This document shows, one piece after another, positions 1-13,287 of a stretch of 64,000 bases of DNA. Below the pieces are notes generated by a model. That model had not been told where the DNA came from. It was given only the letters and a program-made list of their open reading frames with translations, and did no database searches. The stretch spans positions 62,001 to 126,000 of the forward strand of contig JAQGMR010000013.1 in assembly GCA_028292265.1 (NCBI GenBank), written 5' to 3'. Numbering within the stretch: position 1 is the first letter of the stretch; every line of letters starts with the position of its first letter. The translations under genes and the position numbers were made by a program. The stretch is from Herminiimonas sp. Lineage in GTDB: Bacteria; Pseudomonadota; Gammaproteobacteria; Burkholderiales; Burkholderiaceae_D.

Positions 1-204
1 CACCGTGCCCGCAACCTCGGTGCCGGGGGTGAAGGGCGGCTCCTGTCGATTCTGGTGCTTGCCCTCCATCACAAGTAGATTTGCAAAGCTGACGCCGATC
101 GCCCGGACCTCGATACGCACACCCTTGGGGTGAATCAGCGGCTCCGGCGCGTCTTCGACTGCTGCTGCTTGCAGGCCATAGCCGCGACAGACAACGGCCT
201 TCAC
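1..204 (-). CDS. Zinc-less quinone oxidoreductase (MDR family), N-terminal part
   Basis: Truncated by the window edge; the first 68 codons are visible. Translating the minus strand from a GTG start gives an N-terminus beginning VKAVVCRGYG and running to FTPGTEVAGTV, which is the GroES-like fold and substrate-cleft start of NADPH:quinone reductase-like medium-chain dehydrogenases. I inferred the start from a 4-bp GTGA overlap with the stop of the upstream crotonase gene, which implies translational coupling. Family known, substrate unknown. The rest of the gene lies outside the window. Confidence 0.75.
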   Translation of the reverse strand, partial: MKAVVCRGYGLQAAAVEDAPEPLIHPKGVRIEVRAIGVSFANLLVMEGKHQNRQEPPFTPGTEVAGTV

Positions 205-992
205 GCGATCGTCCCGTGACGGCCAGCGCCGGATGAAAAGACTTTGGCGCCCGCTTCCGCTTCAAGCTGCCGCGCTGCGACCGAAAGCTCGGCCTCCCGG
301 GCAATAGCACGTTCCATCACGGCCCCGTCCTGTTCATACATGGATCGCCGATCCGAAAGCATCGCGATCTCCGGAAAAGCGGCGATTTGATGGGCCAATT
401 CTTCCGCCGCTCTCCGGGCTTGCCCATCGGGCACAAGCCGGTTGACCAATCCGATCTGTTGCGCTTCAAGGGCTCCGACCTTGCGCGCGGTGAGCAGCAT
501 GTCGAGCGCGCGACCCATGCCGATCAGGCGCGGCAGGCGAACCGTTGTGCCGTCGCTCATGGGCACTCCCCAGCGTCGCGACAGCACCGCAAAAGTCGCA
601 CTCTCTTCTGCCACGCGCAAGTCGCACCAGAGCGCAACCCCCAGGCCGCCGGCACAGGCATAGCCAGCCACTGCTGCGATTACAGGCTTGCTTAAGGGAG
701 CGCGCAGCGGCCCGCTTTCACTGCCTGCCCAAGGCTCGTAACGCACGCCGGTCGCCATTTCCTTCAAGTCCGCACCGGCGCAGAAGGCCCCGCCGGCGCC
801 CGTCAGTACCGCGACTTTGGCCGTGGAGTCATTCTCGAATTCGCGGAACGCTGCTGCCAGCAAGTTTGTCGCCTCAAGGTCCAGCGCGTTTCTCGCCTCT
901 GGACGGTTGATGGTAATGGTGGTCACTGGCCCTGATTTCCCGATGAGAATCTTGTGCCGATTGGATCTGTGATGGCTCGGTTCTTCGTTCAT
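201..992 (-). CDS. Crotonase-fold enoyl-CoA hydratase/isomerase family protein
   Basis: A protein of 263 aa if it starts at the ATG at 992 (MNEEPSHH), which has a GGGA-type ribosome site; the open frame runs upstream to 1079. The crotonase oxyanion-hole segments are clear: AFCAGADLKEM and GYACAGGLGVAL. The two glutamates used by classical enoyl-CoA hydratases are not at their usual places: the GGG-CE-LA motif reads GGL-GV-AL, and the second glutamate loop reads WGVPMSDG. True hydratase activity is therefore doubtful. It overlaps the downstream quinone oxidoreductase start by 4 bp, so the two are one operon. A CoA-thioester substrate is likely; the reaction is not assigned. Confidence 0.8.
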   Translation of the reverse strand: MNEEPSHHRSNRHKILIGKSGPVTTITINRPEARNALDLEATNLLAAAFREFENDSTAKVAVLTGAGGAFCAGADLKEMATGVRYEPWAGSESGPLRAPLSKPVIAAVAGYACAGGLGVALWCDLRVAEESATFAVLSRRWGVPMSDGTTVRLPRLIGMGRALDMLLTARKVGALEAQQIGLVNRLVPDGQARRAAEELAHQIAAFPEIAMLSDRRSMYEQDGAVMERAIAREAELSVAARQLEAEAGAKVFSSGAGRHGTIA

Positions 993-1181
993 TGCGCATG
1001 ATCCCGTCGTTCTGTTTGGCCATATGGACACTTCGTCTGTTCGGCCGTTATCCCTCCTGCACGACTCGCTGAACAGCACATACTACTCAGTATTATGCCC
1101 ACTTCGACGGTTACAGGAAAGGGGCTTCACGCTTCCCCCGAGGCTTGGCATTGCCGCCCGATTGGCTTGGGCACGAAAGGA

Positions 1182-2102
1182 TCATGCGGCGCTACCGCCA
1201 ATTTTTGCGGTCGCTTTTCGTAATTGGGGCACTGCGAAGTCAAGAAAGCGGCGCATCTTGAGTGGCATCTGGCCGCGCGACGCGTGGAGCAGATTGACAG
1301 GTGCGGGTTCCGGTTCGAATTCAGTAAGGATTATTTGCAGTGCTCCAGCGTTAACCGCCTCGAGGACTTGATAGTGCAACAGCCGTGTAACGCCAACGCC
1401 GCGTGCAGCACCTTCCGCCGCGGCCTCTGTTGTCGTCACTGACAAGCGGGGTACGACAGGAATTTCGAAGGTCGTTCCTGAACCCAGAGCTTTGAATTGC
1501 CATCGTGGAGAGAGCATCGGTGTATCGACAGTGACGCATCGCAGGTTCAGGAGATTCTCGGGGGTCGTTGGTACGCCCCACCGGCTCATAAAATCGGGGC
1601 TTGCGCATACCACGGTCCGCATATTGCCAACTTGTGTTGCCACCATGGAGCTATCCGGCAGCTTGCCAATTCGCACGGCCATATCGATGTGATCGTCGGT
1701 AAGGCTGACGTTCCGATCGGTCAGGACAAGGCGGATATTGATCTCGGCGAACATCGCAAGGAAGTCGGCGACCACGGGTAGCACATGCAGTCTGCCGAAC
1801 GAAATTGGCGCAGTAATCACCAATTCGCCCTTTGGCGCATTGAACTCGCCTGCTGCCTCCTGTTCAGCATCTTCGACTAGTCCCAGGATCCGCCGCGCCG
1901 CCGCGATGTAGCTTATGCCTGCGTCCGTAAGTGTGAGCTTGCGGGTGGTTCGAATGAGAAGTCGTGTGCCCAAGCGGGTTTCAAGGTCGGAAACCTTGCG
2001 GCTTAGTGTTGCCAGGGGCACGTTCAAAGCCCGTCCCGCAGCTGAAAAGCTTCCAGCCTCGCTTACTTTCACCAGGATCGACATGGCTTCGAAGCGATCC
2101 AT
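1182..2102 (-). CDS. LysR-family transcriptional regulator
   Basis: A protein of 306 aa. The N-terminal winged helix-turn-helix (MDRFEAMSILVKVSEAGSFS, then LATLSRKVSDLE around residues 30-40) is followed by a type-2 periplasmic-binding effector domain. The ATG at 2102 was chosen over the longer frame to 2228 because GGGAGA lies just upstream and the LysR domain starts there. It is divergent from the flavin-type oxidoreductase at 2266, so it probably controls that gene and itself. The spacer holds a direct repeat GAATACCGG at 2137-2145 and 2154-2162 that could be its operator. The inducer is unknown. Confidence 0.9.
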   Translation of the reverse strand: MDRFEAMSILVKVSEAGSFSAAGRALNVPLATLSRKVSDLETRLGTRLLIRTTRKLTLTDAGISYIAAARRILGLVEDAEQEAAGEFNAPKGELVITAPISFGRLHVLPVVADFLAMFAEINIRLVLTDRNVSLTDDHIDMAVRIGKLPDSSMVATQVGNMRTVVCASPDFMSRWGVPTTPENLLNLRCVTVDTPMLSPRWQFKALGSGTTFEIPVVPRLSVTTTEAAAEGAARGVGVTRLLHYQVLEAVNAGALQIILTEFEPEPAPVNLLHASRGQMPLKMRRFLDFAVPQLRKATAKIGGSAA

Positions 2103-2136
2103 TGATTCTCCCGGTTTTCGGTGAGGTGATTCCCAA

Positions 2137-2162
2137 GAATACCGGATTATCTCGAATACCGG
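2137..2162. promoter_or_regulatory. Direct repeat in LysR/oxidoreductase spacer, candidate operator
   Basis: GAATACCGG occurs at 2137-2145 and again at 2154-2162, 17 bp apart start to start, between two divergent genes, one of which is a LysR regulator. LysR proteins bind in such spacers, but the T-N11-A core is not clear here, so this is a candidate only. Confidence 0.35.
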
Positions 2163-2265
2163 GATGCGGCATGATTCTACCCAGGTGAGCGACGCCGGTA
2201 GTGCAATGTCGAATGGCCGGGCGACCAAGACTCCGGCCCGCTTCTTTCAACTCGAGGGACTTATC

Positions 2266-2898
2266 ATGTCCAATGGCTTTCTGGATATCGCCGTGACACC
2301 CACTGTCCGAGCCGTCCAAGAGAAGATGGGCGCCTACCGTAAACGGCAGGATCCTGCGAGACACCGTGATCCAGATCGGTTCACGGAATACGAGGCTGCC
2401 TTCCTCTCCGACCGCGACAGCTTCTACATGGCCACGGTCTCGGAGACGGGTTGGCCTTATGTCCAGCATCGCGGTGGCCCCCGCGGCTTCCTCAAAGTAG
2501 TGGACGACCGTACGCTGGCGTTTGCTGACTATCGCGGTAATCGCCAATACATCAGCACTGGCAATCTGTCGGCCAATAACCGCATTTGCCTGATAGCCGT
2601 GGACTACACCCGCCGCCTGCGACTTAAGGTCTTCGCGTATGTGGAAACGCTTGAGGTCGATAACGACCCAGTTCTAACCGAACTAGTCAGCGTGCCGGGC
2701 TACAAAGCAAAACTAGAACGCATCTTCCGGCTGCGCGTTGAAAGTTTCGACTGGAATTGCCCCCAGCACATCGCGCCAAGATTTACCGAGCTAGAAGTCA
2801 ACGAGGCGGTCCGACCGCTTCGCGATCGGCTCGCTGAAGTCGAAGCCGACAATGTCGCGCTGCGCATTCGCCTTGCCAAAAGTGGAGATACGGCATGA
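2266..2898 (+). CDS. Pyridoxamine 5'-phosphate oxidase-like flavin-binding protein
   Basis: A protein of 210 aa starting at the ATG at 2266, with GAGGGA upstream. Residues about 40-140 carry the split-barrel flavin-binding pattern of the PNPOx-like family: AFLSDRDSFYMATVSETGWPY, then RGGPRGFLKV and DYRGNRQYISTGNL. The last 35 residues form a predicted coiled coil (PLRDRLAEVEADNVALRIRL). Proteins of this type bind FMN or a related flavin and often act as small reductases or heme/flavin sensors. It is divergent from the LysR gene. The 3' end lies next to the tRNA insertion hot spot. Confidence 0.8.
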   Translation: MSNGFLDIAVTPTVRAVQEKMGAYRKRQDPARHRDPDRFTEYEAAFLSDRDSFYMATVSETGWPYVQHRGGPRGFLKVVDDRTLAFADYRGNRQYISTGNLSANNRICLIAVDYTRRLRLKVFAYVETLEVDNDPVLTELVSVPGYKAKLERIFRLRVESFDWNCPQHIAPRFTELEVNEAVRPLRDRLAEVEADNVALRIRLAKSGDTA

Positions 2899-2901
2899 CA
2901 C

Positions 2902-2943
2902 AAAAAAAAGGACTTGGCCCATGCGCGATAGCGAGCCAAGTCC
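2902..2943 (-). terminator. Rho-independent terminator (outermost host hairpin)
   Basis: On the minus strand GGACTTGGC pairs with GCCAAGTCC (arms 2935-2943 and 2910-2918) and is followed by eight T residues (2902-2909). It lies downstream of a tRNA 3'-end remnant at 2953 and is probably the original terminator of the tRNA locus before the integrations. Confidence 0.75.
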
Positions 2944-2952
2944 GCAATTGTG

Positions 2953-2985
2953 TTGGTGGGCCTCCCGCGGCGGAACGCGTGGCCC
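2953..2985 (-). repeat. Degraded tRNA 3'-end remnant (older attachment scar)
   Basis: Fifteen bases at 2953-2967 (TTGGTGGGCCTCCCG) are identical to the acceptor/CCA end of the intact tRNA at 10544 and to the left att copy at 3029-3043. Similarity to the T-arm then decays. Placed between two terminator hairpins, it looks like the scar of an earlier integration at the same tRNA. Confidence 0.5.
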
Positions 2986-2988
2986 AAA

Positions 2989-3021
2989 CAAAAAAGGGTT
3001 AGCGGAAGCTAACCCCTTTTT
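2989..3021. terminator. Bidirectional terminator beside the left att copy
   Basis: GGGTTAGC (2996-3003) pairs with GCTAACCC (3008-3015), with an A-run on one side and a T-run on the other, so it can stop transcription from both sides. It follows the tRNA fragment at 3024-3075 in the tRNA direction. Confidence 0.8.
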
Positions 3022-3023
3022 GT

Positions 3024-3075
3024 TTTACTTGGTGGGCCTCCCGTGAGTCGAACACGGCACCAACGGATTATGAGT
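3024..3075. repeat. Left attachment site (attL) of the integrative element
   Basis: A 52-bp perfect direct repeat of 10538-10589. The sequence is the 3' part of the CAT-anticodon tRNA (anticodon to CCA) plus 6 bp beyond it. The intact tRNA lies at the right end beside the integrase, so this copy is the displaced 3' fragment. The distance between copies (7514 bp) gives the element size. Confidence 0.93.
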
Positions 3076-3155
3076 TTTATTAACCCATTGATTTACTTGA
3101 TTATTGGCTCGCCCTCACTCGTCACGTTTCGCCAAACATCGTCGGGATCGTCACG
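3074..3155. repeat. Element-end repeat, copy A (beside the tRNA-Ile2 fragment)
   Basis: 82 bp directly inside attL that align without gaps to 5031-5112, with about nine mismatches. Each copy directly follows a tRNA 3' fragment, which suggests conserved integrase arm or accessory sites at the left end of this element family. Confidence 0.75.
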
Positions 3156-3485
3156 TTCCCGTTGGGTCCCCGAACAGGTCTTACTGCGAACCAAAACATT
3201 GGTCCGGCTTGTCTGCATTTTGCCGCCGAAACTGGCTCAGCGCCTCGCGGCCTAGTAATTTCTGCCTTCATGTTCGGAGGGGAAGCAAACCAGATATAGA
3301 AACTATAGGATGTTGCAGTACAGCACTGGCCGCTTCTGGAATGAAGTAACATGACTTCACTGTTTTTTGACGTATAACCCGGCCGTTTTCAGAACACGAA
3401 GCCGGGCGTAGCTTTAGGAGCGACGCCACAATGTGTTATCAATCAATGTGCCAGGTTATTAGTCGCTTGGTGACGTATAAATCTA
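3156..3485. other. Non-coding stretch between element end and first cassette
   Basis: No convincing gene here. It holds a hairpin CCCGGC...GCCGGG at about 3379-3406 and two copies of TGACGTATAA (about 3369 and 3471). A preceding attC or attI site would be expected just before the cassette boundary at 3486, but I cannot recognise one. Confidence 0.4.
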
Positions 3486-3492
3486 GTTAGAC
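3486..3492 (+). other. Integron core site at the 5' boundary of cassette 1
   Basis: GTTAGAC matches the GTTRRRY core, and it is followed by ATC-ATG, exactly the spacing seen at the start of many integron gene cassettes. The ATG is the start of the 93-aa ORF. Confidence 0.65.
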
Positions 3493-3495
3493 ATC

Positions 3496-3777
3496 ATGAA
3501 CACGGACATCGCTTTACTAATTTCGGACGCTAAAGAGTGGCTGGAGGCGCAATTACCGGCCGAGCAAGGTTCGGAGCGTTGGTATTCGCTCGGTAACTTC
3601 CGATCTTTCGTCTCGGAGATAGAAGCCGACAGTTCGCCGCAGTCAATTGAGCGAGCCTCGTGGGCATTAAGCCGCCACATTAGCGATCAACTAGAGTGGT
3701 CAGCGGAGCACTGTAAAATCATTTCCTCATTTCTGGAGCGGGCGAGGAGAATCAGAAAGGCCACGCAAGATGCCTAA
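3496..3777 (+). CDS. Cassette-encoded protein of unknown function (93 aa)
   Basis: A mostly helical, soluble-looking 93-aa protein with no signal peptide, membrane segment or motif I recognise (MNTDIALLISDAKEWLEAQL at the N-terminus, basic SFLERARRIRKATQ at the end). There is no Shine-Dalgarno sequence, which is common in integron cassettes. The stop codon lies inside the R'' box of an attC site (3772-3778), and the start is 4 bases after a core site, so the gene fills a single cassette of about 340 bp. Function unknown; being captured as a cassette suggests an adaptive or defence role, but that is inference only. Confidence 0.65.
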   Translation: MNTDIALLISDAKEWLEAQLPAEQGSERWYSLGNFRSFVSEIEADSSPQSIERASWALSRHISDQLEWSAEHCKIISSFLERARRIRKATQDA

Positions 3778-3832
3778 CTTGTCGCTCAACACGGGCATCC
3801 GTTCCGGCTGCCGGTCAGCTTAGTCGTTAGCT
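3772..3832 (+). other. attC recombination site of cassette 1
   Basis: Starts with GCCTAAC (R'', RYYYAAC) overlapping the stop codon and ends with GTTAGCT (R'). Between them GCTCAACACGGGCATCCG pairs imperfectly with the 3' half (CGGCTGCCGGTCAGC), giving the usual imperfect palindrome. It is 61 bp long, within the usual attC range. The R' box deviates from GTTRRRY by one base. Confidence 0.65.
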
Positions 3833-3848
3833 GCCTCGCTGCACACAC

Positions 3849-4526
3849 ATGAGCAATCTAGCGATCGAAGTTGAAGCAGTACTGAAGCGCGTGGACGATA
3901 CCCTCGACACCGCGCGTCTCGGGCTCAAAGATCTTCTCGACACAACAAGAAGTCGACGCATGAGCGGTCTGCGTAACCTCATCGCTTTTGGCCGCTCTGT
4001 CACGTTTGTTCTACAGAACCTTCGGTCCGTTGTTCCCCCAGGAGAGTTCGACAGTTGGTACGAACCGCACCAACAGTCCCTCAAGGCTGATCCGCTAATG
4101 CCCTACTTCGTCGACGCACGCAACGAACTCGAAAAGCAGGGCAAGTTGAGCGTTGTAACCAGTTCGCACATTCGGTCGTTCTCGTCCGATGACATCAAGA
4201 AGTTTGGCCGTCCGCCCATGGGCGCTACAGTCTTCTTTATCGGTGACCAATTGGGCGGTTCCGGATGGGAAGTGGAACTTGCTGACGGATCCAAGGAAAA
4301 ATACTATGTCGAGCTGCCGTCTTCCATCGGCGCGGTAAAGCAGCACTTCTCAAATCTTCCCGAAGCAATGTCTCCTGAATTGAAGGGCGCGACGATTGAA
4401 GAGCTCGCGGAAAGGTATATCGCGCGCATGACTGTCCTAGGCGCTGCGGCAAGAGCCCACTTCCTTGGGCCGCCACCGTCACCAGTGGCCAGACAAAGGC
4501 CAACGTATCTCAAGCGAGTGAAGTGA
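3849..4526 (+). CDS. Cassette-encoded protein of unknown function (225 aa)
   Basis: A soluble protein with no signal peptide. The first 60 residues are predicted helical (IEVEAVLKRVDDTLDTARLG); the middle has a possible beta region (GATVFFIGDQLGGSGWEVEL, about residues 128-147); the end is basic (RPTYLKRVK). I do not recognise the family. The ATG is 17 bases after the R' box of the preceding attC and the stop is 8 bases before the R'' box of the next, so it fills cassette 2. No ribosome site is visible, as often in cassettes. Confidence 0.7.
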   Translation: MSNLAIEVEAVLKRVDDTLDTARLGLKDLLDTTRSRRMSGLRNLIAFGRSVTFVLQNLRSVVPPGEFDSWYEPHQQSLKADPLMPYFVDARNELEKQGKLSVVTSSHIRSFSSDDIKKFGRPPMGATVFFIGDQLGGSGWEVELADGSKEKYYVELPSSIGAVKQHFSNLPEAMSPELKGATIEELAERYIARMTVLGAAARAHFLGPPPSPVARQRPTYLKRVK

Positions 4527-4533
4527 GACAGGC

Positions 4534-4599
4534 AGCTAATCCTTCCATCAAGCGGACCAACCTGCGTTCTCCTTTGGCCGCTTATGTTAAACGTTATCT
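4534..4599 (+). other. attC recombination site of cassette 2
   Basis: This is the clearer of the two sites. AAGCGGACCAA (4549-4559) pairs with TTTGGCCGCTT (4573-4583) with one unpaired A, the extrahelical base expected in attC folding. The outer boxes are AGCTAAT (4534-4540) and GTTATCT (4593-4599), both slightly diverged from the consensus. The TCAAGCGGAC and GGCCGCTTA strings are typical of proteobacterial attC sites. Confidence 0.8.
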
Positions 4600-4626
4600 G
4601 GCCTTTGTATTATCGCAAGAGCCTTG

Positions 4627-4830
4627 TTAAGGGTGATCTTTATCAGTCCGCTTTTTAAATAATTTCTTTTTTATTTCTGGCTTAAACAGAAGCACAAATT
4701 CTGCGTTGTTAATAACGAGCTGTCCGCCCTCGGGAATGTTATCCACCACTTTTAAATTCTTAAAAAATTTCGTGGTAGAAGATCTGGATTTGGCGGAGGA
4801 TGGTTTTTTGGTTTTAGTATGGTTCGTCAT
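4627..4830 (-). CDS. Small basic protein of unknown function (67 aa)
   Basis: Lys/Ser-rich N-terminus (MTNHTKTKKPSSAKSRSS), then a short folded-looking stretch (GGQLVINNAEFVLLFKPEI) and a basic tail. A strong GGGAGGT ribosome site lies 9 bases before the ATG at 4830, which argues for real translation. It is AT-rich compared with the chromosome and runs opposite to the cassettes. No family recognised. Confidence 0.5.
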   Translation of the reverse strand: MTNHTKTKKPSSAKSRSSTTKFFKNLKVVDNIPEGGQLVINNAEFVLLFKPEIKKKLFKKRTDKDHP

Positions 4831-4844
4831 GGTCTAGTTACCTC

Positions 4845-4866
4845 CCAAGCTGGACTCGAACCATGA
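4845..4866 (-). repeat. Possible third tRNA T-arm remnant
   Basis: The minus strand reads TGGTTCGAGTCCAGC, matching the tRNA-Asn fragment at 4987-5031 over the T-loop. The rest has diverged, and the sequence now includes the ribosome site of the 67-aa ORF. It may be chance. Confidence 0.3.
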
Positions 4867-4921
4867 AAATATACTAAAAGCCTTGTAACTCAAAGAGTTA
4901 CCGCTTTGGTGAGATTTTGGA

Positions 4922-4960
4922 CAAAAAAAAATGAGTTTCGCCAAAACTGGCTCAACTCAT
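4922..4960 (-). terminator. Rho-independent terminator beyond the tRNA-Asn fragment
   Basis: On the minus strand ATGAGTT...GCCA-loop-TGGC...AACTCAT forms an interrupted hairpin followed by nine T residues. It stands in the same relation to the tRNA-Asn fragment as the hairpins beside the other tRNA fragments here, so it was probably carried along from a tRNA-Asn locus. Confidence 0.65.
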
Positions 4961-4986
4961 TGATTTTAAAAACACTTGTGAAATTC

Positions 4987-5031
4987 TGGCTCCCCGACCT
5001 GGACTCGAACCAGGGACCTGCGGATTAACAG
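4987..5031 (-). repeat. tRNA-Asn(GTT) 3' half: foreign attachment fragment
   Basis: The minus strand gives anticodon loop CTGTTAA, T-arm CCTGGTTCGAGTCCAGG, acceptor CGGGGAG and encoded CCA. The 5' half is absent, so it is not a functional tRNA. It is followed directly by the same end sequence as the element's left end, so it looks like the attL of a related element that once used a tRNA-Asn gene. Confidence 0.8.
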
Positions 5032-5112
5032 TTTGATTAAACCATTGATTTGATTGATTGTTGGCTCGCCCTCACTCGTCGCGTTTCGCCAAGCATCGTC
5101 AGAATCGTCACG
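5031..5112. repeat. Element-end repeat, copy B (beside the tRNA-Asn fragment)
   Basis: Ungapped partner of 3074-3155 with about nine mismatches in 82. It marks the left end of an inner element that runs to the integrase and holds the ATPase, Rep and integrase genes. The remaining bases to 5213 show nothing recognisable. Confidence 0.75.
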
Positions 5113-5213
5113 CGGGAAAATTTGGGCAATGGATTGTTGTCCTTTCTGAATGAGACGTGATGGTCCAAGATTATGCTCACCTGTAGCATCTTTGTAGAAA
5201 GGCCGAGCCGGAA

Positions 5214-7064
5214 CTAAAACTTTCCGGTGTTAATTCTAATTCCCAATGCTCTATAAAACATTGGATGTATGTGTATCGTGGAAGACGGGCGGATTTGACC
5301 AGCACTCAGCCGGGTTAGGTGATTTGAGCGAGCCCAATTGATTGCGTCAGTAGGGCCCGTTTTAACGCCGACAAGCCCTATAAAATAGAATTCCCGCAAG
5401 ATAAAGTTTCGTACTGACTCAAAATTCGCATTCCCCGCTTCGTATAAGGTGAAAAGGGACTTGGTGACTGAGTCTATACTTTCATTGTTTAGCGTGACCG
5501 CAATATCTTCGAATTTGCGTTTCAGATAATCTTCTGTTATTACGCTCACTTCGAAATGATCTTTTAGTCCAAATAGTAGCCTGGAGGTATGCATCAAATC
5601 GGGCAGTAGATTACTCCATTCGCTACTCAAGGACTGCAGTCGCTCCACTGAATAGTTCGATTCGGCATCTTTTATTATAGACACGCTGACATCCGGGCGT
5701 CCGGAGGAAAGTGCTAAGCACTCGTTTACGAAAATAATGATATCGCGCGGGCGGTAAAAGGTTCGCTCTAGCATATAGTCGAATGTAGTTTTCCCCTCGA
5801 TACGAGGTGGAAAAATATCTGCAAAAGACACGTCTCCTTTAGTGTAATGCCGCTTAATTACAACATTTATGCGGTCTTGGATGATTTTCTCTAGTTCAGT
5901 TTTTTGCCAGTTTAGTATTAAATAAAGCGCCTTATATTTTTCTTCCTGGAAGCCAGAAGTAGATTCTATATTAAGCACTTTGTATAAAAGATCGTTTCTT
6001 AGCGTCAAAATTATTTTGACATTTGAGAGGCGCTTAAATCGGTTGACAACATCAATTAATGATCGGATTAGTTTGAATCGAACCCGGTCGTCTGCCCAAT
6101 CTTCATCAAGCATATCTATCGTTATGTAGTACGGGTTTTTACTATCATCAAAAATATTTTCCTCTAGTACCGTCAGCATGTTTTCGAGTTCGCGAATTTG
6201 GACTTTAGAAACCGCGTCCATTCCATGCTCAATTACTTCTGATCGCTGCTCCCGTGACAGTTTTTTTGCTCCGTCCGCATCGAAGTGGACTCCTTTTAGT
6301 TTCGCGCCGACGCTCGCAGTCAAGCTACTTTCAACGCATTCCGTCAGCTCGTGTATTCGTTGTTCGGTAGTTTGCCAGAACTTGCTTCCCCACTTTTGGA
6401 AATAGTCTAACGCCAATTCTTTATTTCGGTCTCGTTTAGCGACAATGGACGAAATGTTGCGGATAAAAGATTTATAATTGTCTTCGTTCGTAATGTGGTA
6501 TTTTTCTTTTATTAGCTCAACGACAAGGAGGTGTTTCCACAATAAGACATAAAACGGCGCCAGGTTCACGCCAGCTTCTTCGAAAAATGCGATTACTTTA
6601 TTCGTTGCAATAAAGTTAAGAGATAGGTCATGAGGGGACAATTCGATTACATGATTAACCGAATTTTTTAACCGATATAATAGAGCCGTTTTTCCACATC
6701 CTGTTCGTCCAAGGATAATCCTTTTAGGATTTTTTCTATCAAGTAGGAAACCAATCTCGCCAGTATCGACAAAACATTCATCAAGGAATTGCGAATCATG
6801 TTCCGCGCCAGCCGCACCAACATTGTCATGTTTCCGAAAAACGAAATGATCCACGCCTTCTCCCTTAATTTTTGTTTTGACGCGTCCGTAGCGTGACGTC
6901 CCTAGGCGGGGAACGATACGTTTCATTGGTAGCAATTCAACACTACCACAGGTTGCACAAGGGATACATATTCGAGAATTGGAGACTTTCCGACTTGTGC
7001 GGTAGGGGAACCCTTTAACATTACAACCCGCGCACCGCTTAGCCGACACCCATGGAATCGACAA
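5214..7064 (-). CDS. P-loop ATPase, FunZ/Sll1717-like, with N-terminal zinc ribbon
   Basis: About 616-619 aa. The start is uncertain: the frame opens with a GTG at 7073, but a TTG at 7064 has GAGGTGG six bases upstream and is preferred. Counting from 7073, residues 14-42 hold CxxC and CxxC pairs (CAGC...CIPCATC), a zinc ribbon. FVFRKHDNVG...FLDECFVDTGEIG leads to Walker A GRTGCGKT (122-129), and Walker B is YYITIDMLDED (about 315-325), followed by a sensor-like ILTLRNDLL. This matches the P-loop family annotated FunZ or Sll1717, known to me from mobile islands and suspected to act in defence. The gene is AT-rich and divergent from the 260-aa gene, with overlapping 5' ends. Mechanism unknown. 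Confidence 0.75.
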   Translation of the reverse strand: MSIPWVSAKRCAGCNVKGFPYRTSRKVSNSRICIPCATCGSVELLPMKRIVPRLGTSRYGRVKTKIKGEGVDHFVFRKHDNVGAAGAEHDSQFLDECFVDTGEIGFLLDRKNPKRIILGRTGCGKTALLYRLKNSVNHVIELSPHDLSLNFIATNKVIAFFEEAGVNLAPFYVLLWKHLLVVELIKEKYHITNEDNYKSFIRNISSIVAKRDRNKELALDYFQKWGSKFWQTTEQRIHELTECVESSLTASVGAKLKGVHFDADGAKKLSREQRSEVIEHGMDAVSKVQIRELENMLTVLEENIFDDSKNPYYITIDMLDEDWADDRVRFKLIRSLIDVVNRFKRLSNVKIILTLRNDLLYKVLNIESTSGFQEEKYKALYLILNWQKTELEKIIQDRINVVIKRHYTKGDVSFADIFPPRIEGKTTFDYMLERTFYRPRDIIIFVNECLALSSGRPDVSVSIIKDAESNYSVERLQSLSSEWSNLLPDLMHTSRLLFGLKDHFEVSVITEDYLKRKFEDIAVTLNNESIDSVTKSLFTLYEAGNANFESVRNFILREFYFIGLVGVKTGPTDAINWARSNHLTRLSAGQIRPSSTIHIHPMFYRALGIRINTGKF

Positions 7065-7834
7065 GAAAGCCACCTCAAATTAGCGTGGATCAAATGTCGC
7101 AGCTCATACAGATGCTGCCCATTCTCGATGATGCTCGACCAGTTCTAGCTGCGCAAATGCGGTCGTCCGAAAGCGCTGCCGAGTTCCTCAAGCCCGGCCT
7201 TGCGTGGGGCGGATTTTATGACATGACGATCACGGAACACCTTGCGTGCTTTTGTATGGTGGCAGGGCTCCTCGAACCACTAGTGTTGGCAGCTGCAACC
7301 AATGATCCAGTAGCAGAATTATTTAAGCCGGATGCTGGCCCTGACTGCCAGGAGTGGAACGGGGGAACCGAAGGGCAATTTGGATGGCACGATTTGCTCG
7401 GGGCTCTTTACTCACTCTTGGGCTCTGTGGAATCCGTCGTCCTATACGGCTATTACCTCAACGAGTTGCTCGCGATGTCGTTTGAAGACGGCGACGACGA
7501 GGCTCTTTTTAACGCGATCCGGGTTGACCCAATGGTGGTGACGTCGGAGAAGGCCGCTCATCGCATTAGCGTTGCCGTGGTAAAGGACGACCAACGGTTT
7601 TTAAAAAGCATGCAGAACGCGTTGAAGGGGAAAACCGGAAAACAGGCGCGCTATCTCAAGAAGTTTAAATTTTTGATGCAACTACTACTCGAAGCGGGAA
7701 TGCTCGGTAAACCGAACAAGGAAATTCGCGCGCTCGCCCTGCAGCTCGGTGCTTACGCAAACGATCCGAACGCTGAAAAAAACCTAAACGCTCAAATCCT
7801 CAAGTTCCGCAAAAAGAAAACCATCTCAGATTGA
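7052..7834 (+). CDS. Protein of unknown function, possible partner of the ATPase (260 aa)
   Basis: A soluble protein with no recognised domain. The N-terminal two thirds look helical with hydrophobic stretches (LACFCMVAGLLEPLVLAA; LLGALYSLLGSVESVVLYGYY) that are amphipathic rather than clear membrane spans. An acidic patch (FEDGDDEAL) follows, and the C-terminus is lysine-rich (GKTGKQARYLKKFKF, KFRKKKT). The ATG at 7052 lacks a clear ribosome site, and an in-frame ATG at 7094 is possible. Its 5' end overlaps that of the ATPase by up to 22 bp in a divergent arrangement, so the promoters must lie inside the opposing genes. Function unknown. Confidence 0.65.
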   Translation: MESTRKPPQISVDQMSQLIQMLPILDDARPVLAAQMRSSESAAEFLKPGLAWGGFYDMTITEHLACFCMVAGLLEPLVLAAATNDPVAELFKPDAGPDCQEWNGGTEGQFGWHDLLGALYSLLGSVESVVLYGYYLNELLAMSFEDGDDEALFNAIRVDPMVVTSEKAAHRISVAVVKDDQRFLKSMQNALKGKTGKQARYLKKFKFLMQLLLEAGMLGKPNKEIRALALQLGAYANDPNAEKNLNAQILKFRKKKTISD

Positions 7835-7925
7835 CTTTTGAGATGGTCGCCGGCACAGGCCCTCATCCATAGAGTTCGTATCCGTTGCAGGACACATGTG
7901 TATGCCTGCCGAAACGGAGACCTCT

Positions 7926-9248
7926 ATGGCTACGTCCTCAAATCGCAATTTTCCGAAGTCGCTCGCAGTTCAATCAGCCGTCGAGGTTTCGCTTGGGGAT
8001 CGCGCAGCGACCCCAGGCGACAACCTCGGCGGAACAGAAGGTGCGCCGCCTAGTAACACAGCACCTGATAACAGCAATACATCCTACTTCCAGCCGTATC
8101 GGTGGGGCGTGGATAGCCTCTATCTTTCTTATCCAGGCCAGCTCTCGCAATCGGTCGATGCGGAACTGCGGGAATTAAAAACGCTAGCCCAGGATCGGAA
8201 CGACCTCGCCGCCAAAGCGCAATTTAAATTAGGCGATCATATCTTCGAGGTGAAAGACAAAAGCTCAGGCCTATTCCCCTTCACCATAGAGGATGACGCT
8301 TTCCAAATTCGGTTCTCGGCGCATCATGCCAAGTCAATGCCGATGGCGTACGTCAAAGTCTCTAGTCGTTACCTTAGCCATAAAACGCCCTCAGAAGCCG
8401 AAGCGCATCTTCGCGCTCTCCTAGCCCCACTTGGCGAATTAAGCGCGCCAAAGGTCAGCAGAATCGATCTCTTCGTTGATTTCGCGTCCTCCGTCGATAT
8501 GGAAAGCTGGTCACGCAGTGCCTGGGTGACAAAGGCTAGTGGCGTGAGCCAATACGCCCAGGACCACTCCTTTACCGGTTGGCTCATCGGTGCAGGTAGC
8601 GTGTTGATGGCGCGCCTCTACAACAAGCAAATCGAAATCAAGAAAAGCGGCAAACAGTACCTCGAACCGCTTTGGCGCGAGGCGGGATGGGATTCGGTCG
8701 AACCCGTCTGGCGTCTAGAATTTCAATTCAAACGCGAAGTCCTCGATCAACTCAGCCTAAACAGCATGCCTAGCGTAGTCGATAACCTCAATGGCCTATG
8801 GAGCTACGTCACAACGGAATGGCTCAAGCTCACGATACCAAACTACGCTGATAAGACGCGTAGCCGTTGGCCGATCCATCCGCTTTGGATGGCGCTGGCT
8901 TCTATCGATTGGGAGACCCAAGGCGGCCCTCTGTTGCGCGAGTACGCTCCCAGTCGCGCTCCGAGTCAGGAGTGGGTTGCGCGACGTGCCTTGAGCGCTA
9001 TCGCATCATTTGGGGCGTTGATCGGCACCACAGATTTCAATGCGGCTTTCGATGCGATCGGCAATGCGGCGTTCAACGCTCTCGATGACCAGGCGCACCA
9101 GGTCGGTATTAGTCACTGGACCATGTTCCGCGAAAAAGTCGAAATCCTGAACCGTAAGTACAACACGGCGTTCAACGAGACCCTTCCTGATACAACCACA
9201 CCGGATCTCTCATCTTGGCAATATCGCAGGCAAATCGAGGGCAATTAA
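7926..9248 (+). CDS. Replication initiator-like protein (Rep_trans/RstA type)
   Basis: A protein of 440 aa from the ATG at 7926, which has GGAG seven bases upstream; the frame also opens at 7896. After a low-complexity N-terminus the core has the pattern of rolling-circle initiators of phage and plasmid type: YRWGVDSLYLSY, KVSRIDLFVDF (about 180-190), ARLYNKQIEIKKSGK and PVWRLEFQFKREVL. These segments carry the acidic and RxYxK residues of the Rep_trans fold. It would nick and replicate the excised circle. It sits upstream of the AlpA-like and integrase genes with 2-bp spacing, so the three are one unit. The family assignment is by pattern only. Confidence 0.7.
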   Translation: MATSSNRNFPKSLAVQSAVEVSLGDRAATPGDNLGGTEGAPPSNTAPDNSNTSYFQPYRWGVDSLYLSYPGQLSQSVDAELRELKTLAQDRNDLAAKAQFKLGDHIFEVKDKSSGLFPFTIEDDAFQIRFSAHHAKSMPMAYVKVSSRYLSHKTPSEAEAHLRALLAPLGELSAPKVSRIDLFVDFASSVDMESWSRSAWVTKASGVSQYAQDHSFTGWLIGAGSVLMARLYNKQIEIKKSGKQYLEPLWREAGWDSVEPVWRLEFQFKREVLDQLSLNSMPSVVDNLNGLWSYVTTEWLKLTIPNYADKTRSRWPIHPLWMALASIDWETQGGPLLREYAPSRAPSQEWVARRALSAIASFGALIGTTDFNAAFDAIGNAAFNALDDQAHQVGISHWTMFREKVEILNRKYNTAFNETLPDTTTPDLSSWQYRRQIEGN

Positions 9249-9250
9249 TC

Positions 9251-9682
9251 ATGGAGGAATCTAGCCTGCCTTTGCCTGCTGCCCGTTGCCTGTCCAAAGA
9301 ACTTGCGGCGGCTTACCTGGGGATTGGCGTGACACTGCTGAATGAACTGAGCGTGCCATGCGTGAGACTCGGGCGCCGTACCGTGTATGACAAAGTTGAC
9401 TTGGATGCGTGGCTAGACGACTATAAGCAGCGAGGGCGGGCCGGAAAGGAGTTTCTATGGCCCGAGAAATTGGAGTGTTCAAAAGACCGGATTCACGGTT
9501 TTATTGGATTAACGTTACCCTCCGCAACGGCAAGCGCGTACGCCAAAGCGCTGGGACTGAAAGCCGTGAAGAAGCCGAAGCCTACCTCGCCAAGCTCACC
9601 CTTGACGCCTACCGCGAAGCACATTTCGGAATCAAGTTCGAGCGTTCCTGGCAAGAAGCCGTTGTCCGGTATCTCGCAGTAA
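9251..9682 (+). CDS. AlpA/excisionase-like DNA-binding protein
   Basis: A protein of 143 aa from the ATG at 9251, two bases after the Rep stop. Residues about 14-60 carry the MerR/AlpA-type helix-turn-helix used by excisionases: SKELAAAYLGIGVTLLNEL, then VPCVRLGRRTVYDKVDLDAWL. The frame continues 226 bp into the integrase gene in another frame. The part beyond residue 70 is Ser/Pro/Lys-rich and has no domain, so it may be functional overlap or a read-through tail. It probably controls excision or integrase expression. Confidence 0.75.
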   Translation: MEESSLPLPAARCLSKELAAAYLGIGVTLLNELSVPCVRLGRRTVYDKVDLDAWLDDYKQRGRAGKEFLWPEKLECSKDRIHGFIGLTLPSATASAYAKALGLKAVKKPKPTSPSSPLTPTAKHISESSSSVPGKKPLSGISQ

Positions 9683-10506
9683 AGGTAAGTTTACGGAGCT
9701 TCAAAGATGTGCAGCGGATTTGCCGCCTGCTTGATCCGTATCTTGGAAGACTGACCTTAAAACAGATTGACGGCGACGTGATTTGGTCGGTGATACAAGG
9801 CGAATCAAAGAAGGGGAACAAGCCCGCAACGATCAATCGCTATTTGGCCCTAATCCGCAGCTTGCTCCGGATGGCACGGGATGAATGGCAGTGGATCGAC
9901 GCGTTCCCGAAGATTCGCTTACTGGCGGGAGAAGTTGAGCGGGACAGATGGCTAAACAGGACAGAAGCACAGACTTTAATTGCTGTGTGCCCTCCGTATT
10001 TAGCTGCACTGGTTCGGTATGCCTTGGCAACAGGCTGCCGTGCCCGCGAGATCACGGGATTGGAGTGGAACAGAGTGGATTTGACACGGCACACCGCCTG
10101 GTTGAATCAAACGAAAAATGGCACGCCTCGCGGCGTCCCGTTGAATCAAGATGCGGTGGATGTTCTTGTGGAACAGATTGGCAAACACCCGAGCTATTGT
10201 TTTACCAATAATGGCAAACCAATTGGGTGGGAGCTGACCAGTTCAGCTTGGCACAGTGCCCTGAAACGGGCGGGTATTGAGGATTTTCGGTTTCACGATC
10301 TCCGGCACACGTGGGCATCGTGGCATCGCCAGGCAGGAACGTCGTGCGATGAATTGAAAGACCTCGGTGGCTGGAAATCCCGTCAGATGGTGGACCGCTA
10401 TGCGAAGTATGCGACGGAGAATCTGGCCGTTGCTGCAAGAAGAATTGAGGCTACGCGGGACCCGAACGTGCTACAGCTATCACGTTTTTGTCACGCTCCA
10501 AAATGA
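9457..10506 (+). CDS. Tyrosine recombinase (integrase) of the element
   Basis: A protein of 349 aa starting at the ATG at 9457 behind GGAAAGGAG. It has an N-terminal arm-binding segment (residues 1-60), a SAM-like core-binding domain (about 60-150) and a catalytic domain with R195 (TGCRAREI), K220, H280-x-x-R283 (FHDLRHTW), W306 in the His/Trp position (LGGWKS) and nucleophile Y315 (DRYAKY). All catalytic residues are present. The gene reads towards the intact tRNA 37 bp away, the usual layout for integrases that use tRNA 3' ends. It would recombine the 52-bp att sites. Confidence 0.93.
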   Translation: MAREIGVFKRPDSRFYWINVTLRNGKRVRQSAGTESREEAEAYLAKLTLDAYREAHFGIKFERSWQEAVVRYLAVKVSLRSFKDVQRICRLLDPYLGRLTLKQIDGDVIWSVIQGESKKGNKPATINRYLALIRSLLRMARDEWQWIDAFPKIRLLAGEVERDRWLNRTEAQTLIAVCPPYLAALVRYALATGCRAREITGLEWNRVDLTRHTAWLNQTKNGTPRGVPLNQDAVDVLVEQIGKHPSYCFTNNGKPIGWELTSSAWHSALKRAGIEDFRFHDLRHTWASWHRQAGTSCDELKDLGGWKSRQMVDRYAKYATENLAVAARRIEATRDPNVLQLSRFCHAPK

Positions 10507-10507
10507 C

Positions 10508-10537
10508 AAAGACCTAGGCTTGCGCCTAAGTCTTTGA
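10508..10537 (+). terminator. Terminator-like hairpin after the integrase
   Basis: AAAGAC/GTCTTT and AGGC/GCCT form an interrupted stem between the integrase stop and the tRNA 3' end. It could end integrase transcription or, read on the other strand, serve the tRNA. Confidence 0.5.
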
Positions 10538-10622
<85 letters not shown>

Positions 10623-10635
10623 AATTCTTTTAAGA

Positions 10636-10672
10636 GAAGGGCCACCGATTCACCGATGGCCCTTCTTTTTTT
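10636..10672 (+). terminator. Terminator between tRNA and rpoD
   Basis: GAAGGGCCA (10636-10644) pairs with TGGCCCTTC (10657-10665), followed by seven T residues on the plus strand. The T-run faces rpoD, so it can shield rpoD from read-through of the island; on the minus strand the tail is only weakly T-rich. Confidence 0.7.
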
Positions 10673-10737
10673 CTCACGCCACGGTCATTGCAACCGTGGC
10701 GCAGGCTTTATCCAGCTTCAATTCCAGACTTGCCGAA

Positions 10738-13287
10738 TCAATTCCCTTCCAGGAAGCTCTTGAGCTTGTCGGACCGTGACGGATGCCGCAGCTTGCGCAA
10801 TGCCTTTGCTTCGATCTGGCGAATCCGCTCGCGGGTGACGTCGAACTGCTTGCCGACTTCTTCCAGCGTGTGATCCGTTGACATCTCGATGCCGAAGCGC
10901 ATACGCAGGACCTTGGCTTCGCGCGGCGTGAGGGAATCCAGCACATCCTTGACCACACCACGCATCGAGGCATGCAGCGCCGCGTCGGCCGGGGCCAACG
11001 TGTTGTTGTCCTCGATGAAATCACCAAGATGCGAGTCGTCGTCGTCACCGATCGGCGTCTCCATGGAGATCGGTTCTTTCGCGATCTTCATGATCTTGCG
11101 GATTTTATCTTCCGGCATTTCCATCTTCAACGCCAGCGTTGCCGGATCCGGTTCAGCACCGGTTTCCTGCAGAATCTGACGCGAGATGCGGTTCATCTTG
11201 TTGATCGTTTCGATCATGTGCACCGGAATGCGAATGGTGCGAGCCTGATCGGCGATCGAGCGCGTGATGGCCTGACGAATCCACCACGTGGCATACGTTG
11301 AAAACTTGTAGCCGCGACGGTATTCGAATTTGTCCACCGCCTTCATCAAACCGATATTCCCTTCCTGGATCAAGTCGAGGAACTGGAGGCCGCGGTTGGT
11401 GTACTTCTTCGCAATCGAAATCACCAGTCGGAGGTTCGCTTCGGTCATCTCACGCTTGGCCTTGCGCGCCTTCATTTCACCGGCTGCCATCTTTTTATTG
11501 ATGTTGCGCAGGTCTGGCAACGGCAAGACGACGCGTGCCTGAAGGTCGATCAGTTTCTGCTGCAGCTCTTTGACTGTCGGAACGTTACGACCGAGGATGG
11601 CGCTATACGGCAGGGGTCGCGCGACTTCACCATCGATCCAGTCCAGGTTGGTTTCATTGCCTGGAAAAACCTTGATGAAATGGCTGCGCGGCATGCCGCA
11701 CTTGTTCACTACGACGTCGAGAATCTGCTTCTCAATGTGTCGAACTTCGTCCACCTGGCCACGCAATGTGTCGCACAGCTTCTCGACCACCTTGGCGGTA
11801 AAACGGATGCTCAGCAGCTCGTTGGAGATTGCTTCCTGCGCCTTGACGTAGGGCTTGGAGTTGTAGCCTTCGCGCTCAAACGCTCTGCGCATTTTTTCAA
11901 ACTGGCTCGAGATATTGGCAAACTTCACCAACGACTCGCGCTTCAGTTGTTCAAGCTGCTCCGCCGAGAAACCAGCAGCGCCCGAAGCATTGCTCTCTTC
12001 CTCTTCGGCTTCTTCTTCCTCTTCCTCGCCTTCTTCGTCGTCTTCGGCCGAAGCCGCAGCCGCGGCCGCAAAGACGGGAGATTCGGACACGTTCATGTCG
12101 ACGAGGCCGTCGACCATCTCGTCAATCTTCAACTCGTCGTTGGTGATCCGGTCTGCCGCTGCAAGGATCTCGGCGATCGTTGTCGGGCAGGCGGAAATCG
12201 CCTGGATCATGTCTTTCAGGCCGTCTTCAATACGCTTGGCGATTTCGATCTCGCCTTCCCGGGTCAGCAGTTCTACCGAGCCCATTTCGCGCATGTACAT
12301 GCGGACAGGGTCGGTGGTGCGGCCGAAATCGGAATCGACGGTTGAAAGCGCTGCCTCGGCAGCGGCTTCGGCGTCATCATCACTTGCAACCGTTGCGACG
12401 TTGTCGGACAACAGCAGCGTCTCGGCATCGGGCGCGTGTTCGTACACGGCGATACCCATGTCGTTGAACGTGCCGATGATGCCTTCAATCGCTTCCGGAT
12501 CAACAATGTTTTCCGGGAGGTGATCGTTGATTTCCGAGTAGGTCAGGAAGCCGCGTTCCTTGCCAAGCTTGATAAGGGTCTTGAGCTTCTGGCGGCGACG
12601 CTCGAGTTCCTCTTCGCTGGCTTCGGTGTCCGACGAGAAGGCGTCCTTGAGCAGTGCTTTTTCCTTGGCCTTGCGGTCCTTGGCGCGTGCCTTGTCGGCC
12701 GCTTTTATTTCGGCGCGCTCAACGGCATTCAGCGCCGCGACTTCTTCATTCTCGGGCTGGAATTCCTTTGGCTTGCGGCCACGGCGTCCGGGCACCTTCA
12801 CGCTTGGCAGAATATAGCCGGACGTGTCGATGGCAGCCAGAGTGGCTGCATCGGTCGTCTGGCTGACGCCGGACGCAAGCTGCACCGACATATCGGGGGG
12901 GCGCACTTCTGGCTTTACGGAGGAAAGTTCAGCCGGTCTTCCGGGTTTGCCGGGTTTCAATTCAAGTTTTTTTGTCGTCACGGTGGTTTTCGATTGTGCA
13001 GACGCCGCACTTGCGGCGCCTCCGGACGAGGTTTTTTCCGCCGGCATTGAAGCCGTCCTGGTCGAGGGTTTGGCAATAGCCACGGATGCCGCTTTGGGCT
13101 CCGAATGTGCGACCGTTCTGGAAGTTGCCTTGTCACTAAGGGGTTTTCCCGAGTCAGCCTTGACTTTGCCATTTGCTTTGGCAGCCACAGGCTTGACAGC
13201 GGACTTGGAAGTCGGCCTGGCAGCCGACGATACATTCTTTGCGGAGGATGTCTGGGGTTTCGCGGTTTTCTTCATTGCATTGGCCAT
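10738..13287 (-). CDS. rpoD: RNA polymerase primary sigma factor RpoD (sigma-70)
   Basis: An 849-aa protein, long compared with 613 aa in E. coli. The first 190 or so residues are a Lys/Ala/Ser/Pro-rich extension. Region 1.1 follows at about 225-300, an acidic non-conserved insert has a Glu run ([14 protein letters not shown]), and region 2 ([26 protein letters not shown]...[17 protein letters not shown]), region 3 and region 4 ([20 protein letters not shown]) are all intact. It ends [15 protein letters not shown] as expected. It is the last gene of the rpsU-yqeY-dnaG-rpoD cluster, separated from dnaG by 272 bp that can hold its own promoter. The start is chosen from MANAMKK; ATG 4 codons later is possible. 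Confidence 0.97.

What the first reader, a model, noticed from the sequence alone, without database searches (positions are those of the whole stretch)
3486..4599. Two integron gene cassettes without an integron integrase inside a tRNA-targeted element
Seen: a GTTAGAC core four bases before an ATG, two ORFs of unknown function each ending at an attC-like site (3772-3832; 4534-4599), the second with AAGCGGACCAA/TTTGGCCGCTT arms and an unpaired A. Known: attC sites fold this way, and clusters of them without IntI are called CALINs. Inference: a cassette pair was captured by, or inserted into, a small integrative element, which can now spread cassettes to tRNA sites without an integron. The encoded 93-aa and 225-aa proteins are unknown and are possible defence genes.
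Basis: partly seen in the sequence, partly recalled or inferred. Interest (0 to 1): 0.8.

Follow-up and report, generated by a model that had tools for sequence, protein, structure and literature searches.

The report
Integron cassettes riding a tRNA-targeting element
Two genuine integron gene cassettes sit, without any integron enzyme, inside a small DNA element that inserts itself into a tRNA gene; several related elements in other bacteria carry cassettes in a similar spot, which suggests a way for cassettes to travel without an integron.

Summary
A covariance model from 49 attC sites of integrons in the same order ranks both sites first and second in the window (36.6, 33.2 bits; next 12.5) and in the 4.85-Mb genome. 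Each attC arm matches the start of its own cassette (9/11, 10/11; adjacent start 7/11). Cassettes: 3487-3826 and 3827-4593. No integron integrase above cut-off in the draft genome. A 55%-identical homologue of the 225-aa protein lies in a Ferrimonas cassette.

They lie in a 7.6-kb element (3028-10622) bounded by tRNA-Met and a 48-bp copy of its 3' half, with integrase, HTH protein and miniplasmid-like Rep. An internal tRNA-Asn fragment shows it is composite.

Beyond the finding: attC sites lie inside 6 of 26 related bounded elements, none with intI inside; in 5 of the 6 at least one site passes the cassette-start test. Enrichment over surrounding DNA is P 0.0007 (0.005 strict), post hoc.

Carriage is shown; excision, transfer and function are inferred. 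IntI-less cassettes on mobile elements are known; this recurrent association I did not find in seven library searches.

The parts
3028..10622 (.). Integrative element in tRNA-Met, 7.6 kb, bounded by the tRNA gene and a displaced copy of its 3' half
   Evidence: tRNA-Met 10544-10622; 48-bp identical copy at 3028-3075; bounding script
3028..3075 (-). Displaced 3' half of tRNA-Met (distal attachment site)
   Evidence: 100% identity over 48 bp with C31:72542-72589 = window 10542-10589
3045..3155 (.). End sequence of the element, copied at 5002-5112 (85%)
   Evidence: the repeat finder D1
3487..3826 (+). Gene cassette 1, 340 bp, starts after G3486
   Evidence: Borders from attC and permuted pairing
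3496..3777 (+). P1, 93-aa protein, unknown; stop codon lies in the R'' box
   Evidence: ORF; no family at a meaningful score; single-sequence model with four helices, pLDDT 78
3771..3832 (+). attC1
   Evidence: 33.2 bits, E 4.6e-6
3827..4593 (+). Gene cassette 2, 767 bp
   Evidence: Borders from attC and permuted pairing, 10/11
3849..4526 (+). P2, 225-aa protein, tentative HEPN-like fold with a beta insert
   Evidence: Family from 25 loci; model pLDDT 82; structure rows
4533..4599 (+). attC2
   Evidence: 36.6 bits, E 6.4e-7
4627..4830 (-). 67-aa ORF, unknown
   Evidence: ORF; no family
4985..5032 (-). tRNA-Asn 3' half, internal: mark of a composite element
   Evidence: 48 bp identical to C59:1759-1806, which holds tRNA-Asn
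5214..7073 (-). P-loop ATPase, Sll1717 family (other cargo)
   Evidence: NF047389 207 bits, cut-off 75
7052..7834 (+). 260-aa ORF found in several related elements
   Evidence: No Pfam family; relatives
7896..9248 (+). Rep-like protein
   Evidence: Matches in a 1.7-kb Mesotoga plasmid, E 3e-12, and four 1.8-kb Synechococcus plasmids
9215..9682 (+). HTH protein, possible excisionase or regulator
   Evidence: HTH_17 E 0.0025, below cut-off; phrog_7338 E 9.5e-7
9457..10506 (+). Tyrosine recombinase (Int) beside the tRNA gene
   Evidence: Phage_integrase E 1.2e-30; phrog_1 E 2.5e-62
10544..10622 (-). tRNA-Met, target gene
   Evidence: ARAGORN, Rfam RF00005 55.4 bits

Best explanation
Two genuine gene cassettes, forming an IntI-less array (CALIN), are cargo of a small integrative, plasmid-like element inserted in tRNA-Met. 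SHOWN: attC sites, cassette borders, no IntI found, a tRNA-bounded element with Int, HTH protein and Rep, and attC sites inside related bounded elements. INFERRED: an integron integrase in an earlier host placed the cassettes at one G|TT point of the element, or an integron entered and lost intI (the attI-like sequences before the arrays of G125 and G274 suggest the latter for those two). The element leaves by its own Int, perhaps with the HTH protein, copies itself as a circle by Rep and re-inserts into tRNA 3' ends, carrying the cassettes; in a cell with IntI the attC sites can be cut out and enter an integron. P2 may be a HEPN-fold protein; its activity is unknown.
For: attC model and genome rank; permuted pairing; no IntI; P2 homologue in a Ferrimonas cassette, arms 11/11; tRNA-Met and 48-bp copy; Int, HTH, Rep and 260-aa ORF 60-78% identical to a bounded tRNA-Asn element of G052; Rep like miniplasmid proteins; attC inside 6 of 26 bounded elements; enrichment over surroundings. 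In the window genome and in G237, neither with IntI over cut-off, the only significant attC sites found lie in the element.
Against: No sign of excision or transfer can be seen in one assembly. No relaxase, coat or terminase was recognised among the eight proteins, so transfer between cells is unexplained. No empty site was found. The element is composite and may be a relic. 20 of 26 bounded elements carry no attC by model R1. G274 has 5 of its 14 attC sites outside both its integron and the element. No promoter-like site was found at 3028-5100.
Confidence: 0.7

Rival explanations
1. A dead graveyard: the tRNA region collected fragments of several elements and a cassette pair; nothing there moves any more and the cassettes are inert.
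For: Internal tRNA-Asn fragment and repeated end sequence; a further 15-bp scrap of the tRNA-Met end at 2953-2967; no promoter-like site.
Against: Int, HTH and Rep frames are intact; the 48-bp tRNA-Met and tRNA-Asn copies are identical to the host's genes; related elements with intact genes carry cassettes too.
Confidence: 0.2
2. Cassettes were inserted at a non-classical (attG-like) site in this chromosome after the element arrived, so the element did not bring them.
For: IntI can insert cassettes at attG sites (PMC12901181, passages); no attI-like sequence is recognisable before cassette 1.
Against: No IntI over cut-off and no other significant attC in this genome; recurrence inside elements.
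Confidence: 0.08
3. The attC sites are chance hairpins.
For: Folding energy of attC1 is unremarkable; the simple scanner did not separate them.
Against: Model scores, genome rank and permuted pairing.
Confidence: 0.01

Closest known systems
CALIN (cluster of attC sites lacking an integron integrase)
   Same: Two attC sites in one orientation without IntI; common in genomes: 2961 CALINs against 2760 complete integrons (PMC9024848, passages)
   Different: Here inside a tRNA-bounded Int-HTH-Rep element, with attC sites in related elements
CALINs and integrons in phages (PMC9892861, passages)
   Same: Cassettes carried by a mobile element; 17 CALINs in 10,705 phage genomes
   Different: No phage structural protein recognised here; Rep like miniplasmid proteins
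Integrons on genomic islands such as SGI1 (recalled; PMC5397566, listing and start of abstract only)
   Same: Cassettes on a site-specific integrative element
   Different: Those carry integrons with resistance genes on larger islands (recalled); here no IntI and a 7.6-kb element
tRNA-Thr integrative plasmid pHS87b (PMC4739549, listing and start of abstract only)
   Same: Small plasmid with an integrase and a tRNA-associated attachment site, with an integrated form
   Different: Its sequence was not compared here; cassettes are not mentioned in what I saw
Strand-biased circularizing integrative elements (PMC9345347, listing and start of abstract only)
   Same: Atypical integrative element discussed together with integrons
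   Different: Not compared by sequence

Membership tests
Integron gene cassette | attC site at the 3' end of the gene | tested here: met
   Model R1, both sites; IntegronFinder's own model was not available
Integron gene cassette | R'' arm complementary to the start of the same cassette (circle junction) | tested here: met
   9/11 and 10/11 against 7/11 adjacent
Integron gene cassette | Recombined by IntI | not testable with these tools
   Needs an assay
Integron gene cassette | Homologous gene in a cassette elsewhere | tested here: met
   P2: Ferrimonas L105, 55%, arms 11/11. P1: no credible relative
CALIN | At least two attC sites and no IntI nearby | tested here: met
   Two attC; no IntI in the window or genome over cut-off
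Complete integron | intI gene with attI | tested here: not met
   No intI; no attI-like sequence by similarity
tRNA-targeted integrative element | Tyrosine recombinase beside a tRNA gene and a displaced copy of its 3' half | tested here: met
tRNA-targeted integrative element | Excision as a circle | not testable with these tools
   Needs reads or PCR
Integrative conjugative or mobilizable element | Relaxase or conjugation genes | tested here: inconclusive
   No such family matched among the eight proteins scanned; no dedicated relaxase or oriT search
HEPN protein (P2) | HEPN fold | tested here: inconclusive
   HEPN chains Z 7.0-8.8 among the top rows, tied with other helical bundles; Foldseek nothing at E up to 0.001
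HEPN protein (P2) | R-x4-6-H catalytic motif (recalled) | tested here: not met
   P2 has R-N-x3-K; of 25 members listed 20 have RN...K and 5 R[TV]...H

The most novel reading that the evidence does not exclude
A widespread family of tRNA-targeted integrative plasmids (Int-HTH-Rep, often with the 260-aa ORF) is a regular vehicle for integron cassettes: they take up cassettes in a cargo slot beside the distal attachment site, move them between tRNA genes and hosts with a phage-type integrase, and release them to any IntI. This would link sedentary integrons of different species without conjugative plasmids and explain some isolated CALINs.
Probability: 0.4. Interest if true: 0.8.

Novelty: new variant of a known kind. 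Interest (0 to 1): 0.62.

Why it matters
How cassettes pass between sedentary chromosomal integrons, and how isolated CALINs arise, is not settled: the review PMC11389934 (passages) gives integrase loss or translocation as the current paradigm and cites the attG work. An element with its own integrase and Rep that repeatedly carries cassettes would be a concrete vehicle. It predicts that attC sites are over-represented inside tRNA-bounded elements, and that the same cassette turns up both in such an element and in an integron.

Tried and rejected
Rfam lists no attC family for window 1-12000 at E up to 1, so I built a model. The first attC scanner was stricter and read only one locus file; repeated. 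That scanner ranked attC2 level with chance sites (10; best chance 12) and missed attC1; the covariance model and permuted pairing are what separate them. Of 63 scanner hits of 50-82 bases, 14 were dropped before training: 6 by eye as non-attC or another type, 8 for length. IntI relic in the element: none. Empty site: none of 100 relatives matched 3160-4980 among the rows listed, none of the loci held did; the joined flanks show no ORF through the junction in any frame. P1 relatives: none in 72,556 plasmid records or viral contigs; one weak match with a stop in 300 genomes. P2: no relative in viral contigs; 3 weak plasmid matches. P2 in L106 lies just after uvrB (name recalled) with no attC by model R1. 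Only 3 of 25 P2 loci have an attC at the gene: L105 by arm match (model R1 misses it), L120 and L127 by model, both without a matching cassette start. In L036 the attC ends a neighbouring cassette (arms 10/11) with two small ORFs that I take for BrnT/BrnA from memory; PADLOC gave nothing for them. Loci not counted as bounded: L215 (copies are neighbouring tRNA genes) and L220 (18-bp copy); L202 (G094), attC sites and an intI but no tRNA copy; L218, one 25-bit site; L259 (G578), attC sites beside Rep on a 3.6-kb contig. The attC of G443 (L255) fails the start test (best 8/11, as chance gives). In G274 only the second of two sites passes (9/10); for the first the best start is 7/10. In G237 the first start, 9/10, has a rival of 9/10 further off. 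Foldseek gave nothing significant for P2. Pipolins (PMC7385651, passages): CALINs there are listed for the host strains, marked as on plasmids. Rep: no phage match, no relative in viral contigs.

Full report
WHAT WAS CHECKED. The window is part of contig C31 of a draft genome (4.85 Mb, 76 contigs, 91.8% complete). The order is very probably Burkholderiales: genome G320, labelled same order, holds a P2 relative on a contig of 355,977 bases, and Pusillimonas sp. TS35 has a contig of the same length with a relative at the matching place.

THE CASSETTES ARE REAL. I fetched integron regions from 20 genomes of the order with a strong IntI match, found attC sites with a scanner, kept 49 of 63, from 15 of the 20 regions, and built a covariance model. 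With filters off the two sites are the only significant matches in 64 kb: 36.6 and 33.2 bits, next 12.5. In the genome they rank first and second, next 23.2 bits with E 0.11. A second test does not use the model. When a cassette closes to a circle, the R'' arm of its attC meets the cassette's own start, so R'' should match a sequence hundreds of bases upstream better than the adjacent R'. Cassette 1 matches 9/11 (adjacent 7/11), cassette 2 10/11 (adjacent 7/11); in the G125 array 27 of 27 sites with a preceding site match their own start at 8-10/10, the adjacent start at 5-9/10. This sets the borders at 3486|3487, 3826|3827 and 4593|4594. Beside natural sites, attC2 shares the CTTCCATCAAG stretch with one of them and TCCATC with two more, and attC1 shares CAACACGG with another.

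THE GENES. P2 has homologues over residues 7 or 8 to 225 in Ferrimonas (55%) and Pacificibacter (48%), and 33-35% matches over about 195 residues in two haloarchaea and two actinobacteria (groups recalled from the names). The Ferrimonas gene sits in a cassette: GTTATAAGTTT at 2973 and its exact reverse complement at 3657 of L105; model R1 does not see this attC, which looks like the Vibrio repeat type (recalled). The L106 homologue shows no attC by R1; two distant relatives (L120, L127) have an attC at the stop codon but no matching start. The P2 model (pLDDT 82, 7 sequences) is a helical bundle with a beta insert; HEPN domains (8xdj, 2hsb, 3o10, 8yuf, 8xeh, 6m6w; Z 8.1-8.8) are among its best structural rows, but p130Cas (8.9) and other bundles score as high. 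In the family the helix motif reads R-N-x3-K in 20 of 25 and R-[TV]-x3-H in 5 of 25 (fragment L129 left out). P2 has the K form, so catalysis like that of known HEPN RNases is doubtful. For P1 I found no credible relative.

THE ELEMENT. tRNA-Met at 10544-10622 and a 48-bp identical copy of its 3' half at 3028-3075 bound 7.6 kb with Int beside the tRNA, an HTH protein, Rep, a 260-aa ORF and a Sll1717-family ATPase. Rep resembles proteins of five plasmids of 1.7-1.8 kb. Int, HTH, Rep and the 260-aa ORF are 60-78% identical to those of an element of G052 bounded by tRNA-Asn. The window's element is composite: a tRNA-Asn 3' half at 4985-5032, followed by an 85% copy of the end sequence, divides it into a 1.96-kb part with the cassettes and a 5.6-kb part resembling the G052 element. 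I infer that two elements at neighbouring attachment sites moved, or were joined, as one; the order of events is not shown.

RECURRENCE. One search lists 90 Int matches (my count), one of them the window; I fetched 60 of the other 89, not all. With the G052 element and the window, 62 loci were examined and 21 are bounded by a tRNA and a displaced copy. In a second sample, 11 Rep matches outside the order, 5 are bounded. attC sites lie inside 6 of these 26: the window; G125 (tRNA-Thr, 19.7 kb, 28 attC; no intI inside, the only one over cut-off is on another contig); G274 (tRNA-Arg, 2 attC; it also has an integron, and 5 of its 14 attC sites lie outside both); G237 (tRNA-Thr, 2 attC, no IntI over cut-off); G628 (tRNA-Met, 1 attC, arm match 11/11); G443 (tRNA-Arg, 1 attC of 31.8 bits that fails the start test). 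In G274 one of the two sites passes the start test (9/10; the other 7/10); in G237 one matches 10/10 and the other 9/10, the latter with a rival start of 9/10 further off. Of the 18 bounded elements with a Rep relative, 5 carry attC; of the 8 without, 1. A local IntI profile finds no intI in these elements. Array edges lie 228-523 bp from the displaced tRNA end. In G237 the cassettes encode a TIR-domain protein and a protein matching the PADLOC model PDC-M36A, so some of this cargo is defence-like; the G628 cassette holds a Hypoth_Ymh protein beside genes like those of a type I restriction system.

HOW FIRM IS THE ASSOCIATION. Window excluded, 25 bounded elements (184 kb) hold 5 attC clusters; the surrounding 803 kb hold 3 (L202 with an intI, L218 single, L259 on a short contig); 20 control regions, chosen by me in 13 of the same genomes (398 kb), hold none at E up to 0.1. 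Poisson P is 0.0007, or 0.0001 with the controls; with only the four clusters that pass the start test 0.005 and 0.001. This is post hoc, the loci are not independent, and the per-region Fisher test on the first sample (3 of 20 against 0 of 20) gave 0.12. I regard the enrichment as likely, not settled.

ORIGIN OF THE ARRAYS. Before its first cassette G125 has a stretch 88% identical to the sequence before the first cassette of its resident integron, and G274 one about 80% identical to sequence upstream of intI in other integrons: these arrays look like integron arrays without intI. In the window no such sequence is recognisable, so insertion at a non-classical site is equally possible.

LITERATURE. 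CALINs are known and common (PMC9024848, passages), also in phages (PMC9892861, passages), and conjugative hitchers and helpers are said to contain CALINs (PMC11389934, passages). Seven searches of the library showed, in their listings, no paper that describes cassettes as recurrent cargo of tRNA-targeted Int-Rep elements; the library lacks most subscription papers, and the attG and IntegronFinder 1 papers are not held.

Noticed in passing
L172 with L188 (G125:C3:168085-187806): Element of the same family in tRNA-Thr with 28 attC sites and an attI-like start but no intI; homogeneous 97-base sites like those of the genome's resident integron.
   Followed up: partly
L211 10398-19004 (G237): tRNA-Thr element with two cassettes encoding a TIR-domain protein and a PDC-M36A-like protein, plus what looks like an IS3-type insertion (recalled); no IntI over cut-off in that genome.
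   Followed up: partly
L254 1394-15805 (G628); L255 2374-11107 (G443); L259 (G578): Related elements outside the order with one or two attC sites; L254 also carries genes like a type I restriction system.
   Followed up: partly
L202 (G094:C23:5712-25465): attC sites and an intI within a few kb of a related Int gene; no bounding tRNA copy found.
   Followed up: no
4844-5112: tRNA-Asn fragment with a copy of the element's end, and a 20-base tRNA-like scrap 149 bases before it, perhaps the rest of a tandem tRNA-Asn array.
   Followed up: partly
L130, L131, L132, L133, L134 (G053, G052, G002, G058, G038): Copies of the element's end sequence (79-92%) in other genomes, in L134 twice within 0.7 kb: possibly short integrase-less units between end repeats.
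   Followed up: no
5214-7073 (- strand): Sll1717-family ATPase in the slot where the G052 element has a different 525-aa ATPase; only a weak match to an anti-phage model (32 of 370 bits).
   Followed up: no
39983-40777 (- strand): Tyrosine recombinase with the genome's best but sub-cut-off match to the integron integrase model (84.9 of 265 bits).
   Followed up: no
P2 family, L105-L128: The helix motif varies in step: R-N-x3-K in 20 of 25, R-[TV]-x3-H in 5 of 25; the H form is the HEPN-like one.
   Followed up: partly
L036 248-883 (G084): A cassette with two small ORFs, possibly BrnT/BrnA (recalled), just before a longer P2 relative.
   Followed up: no
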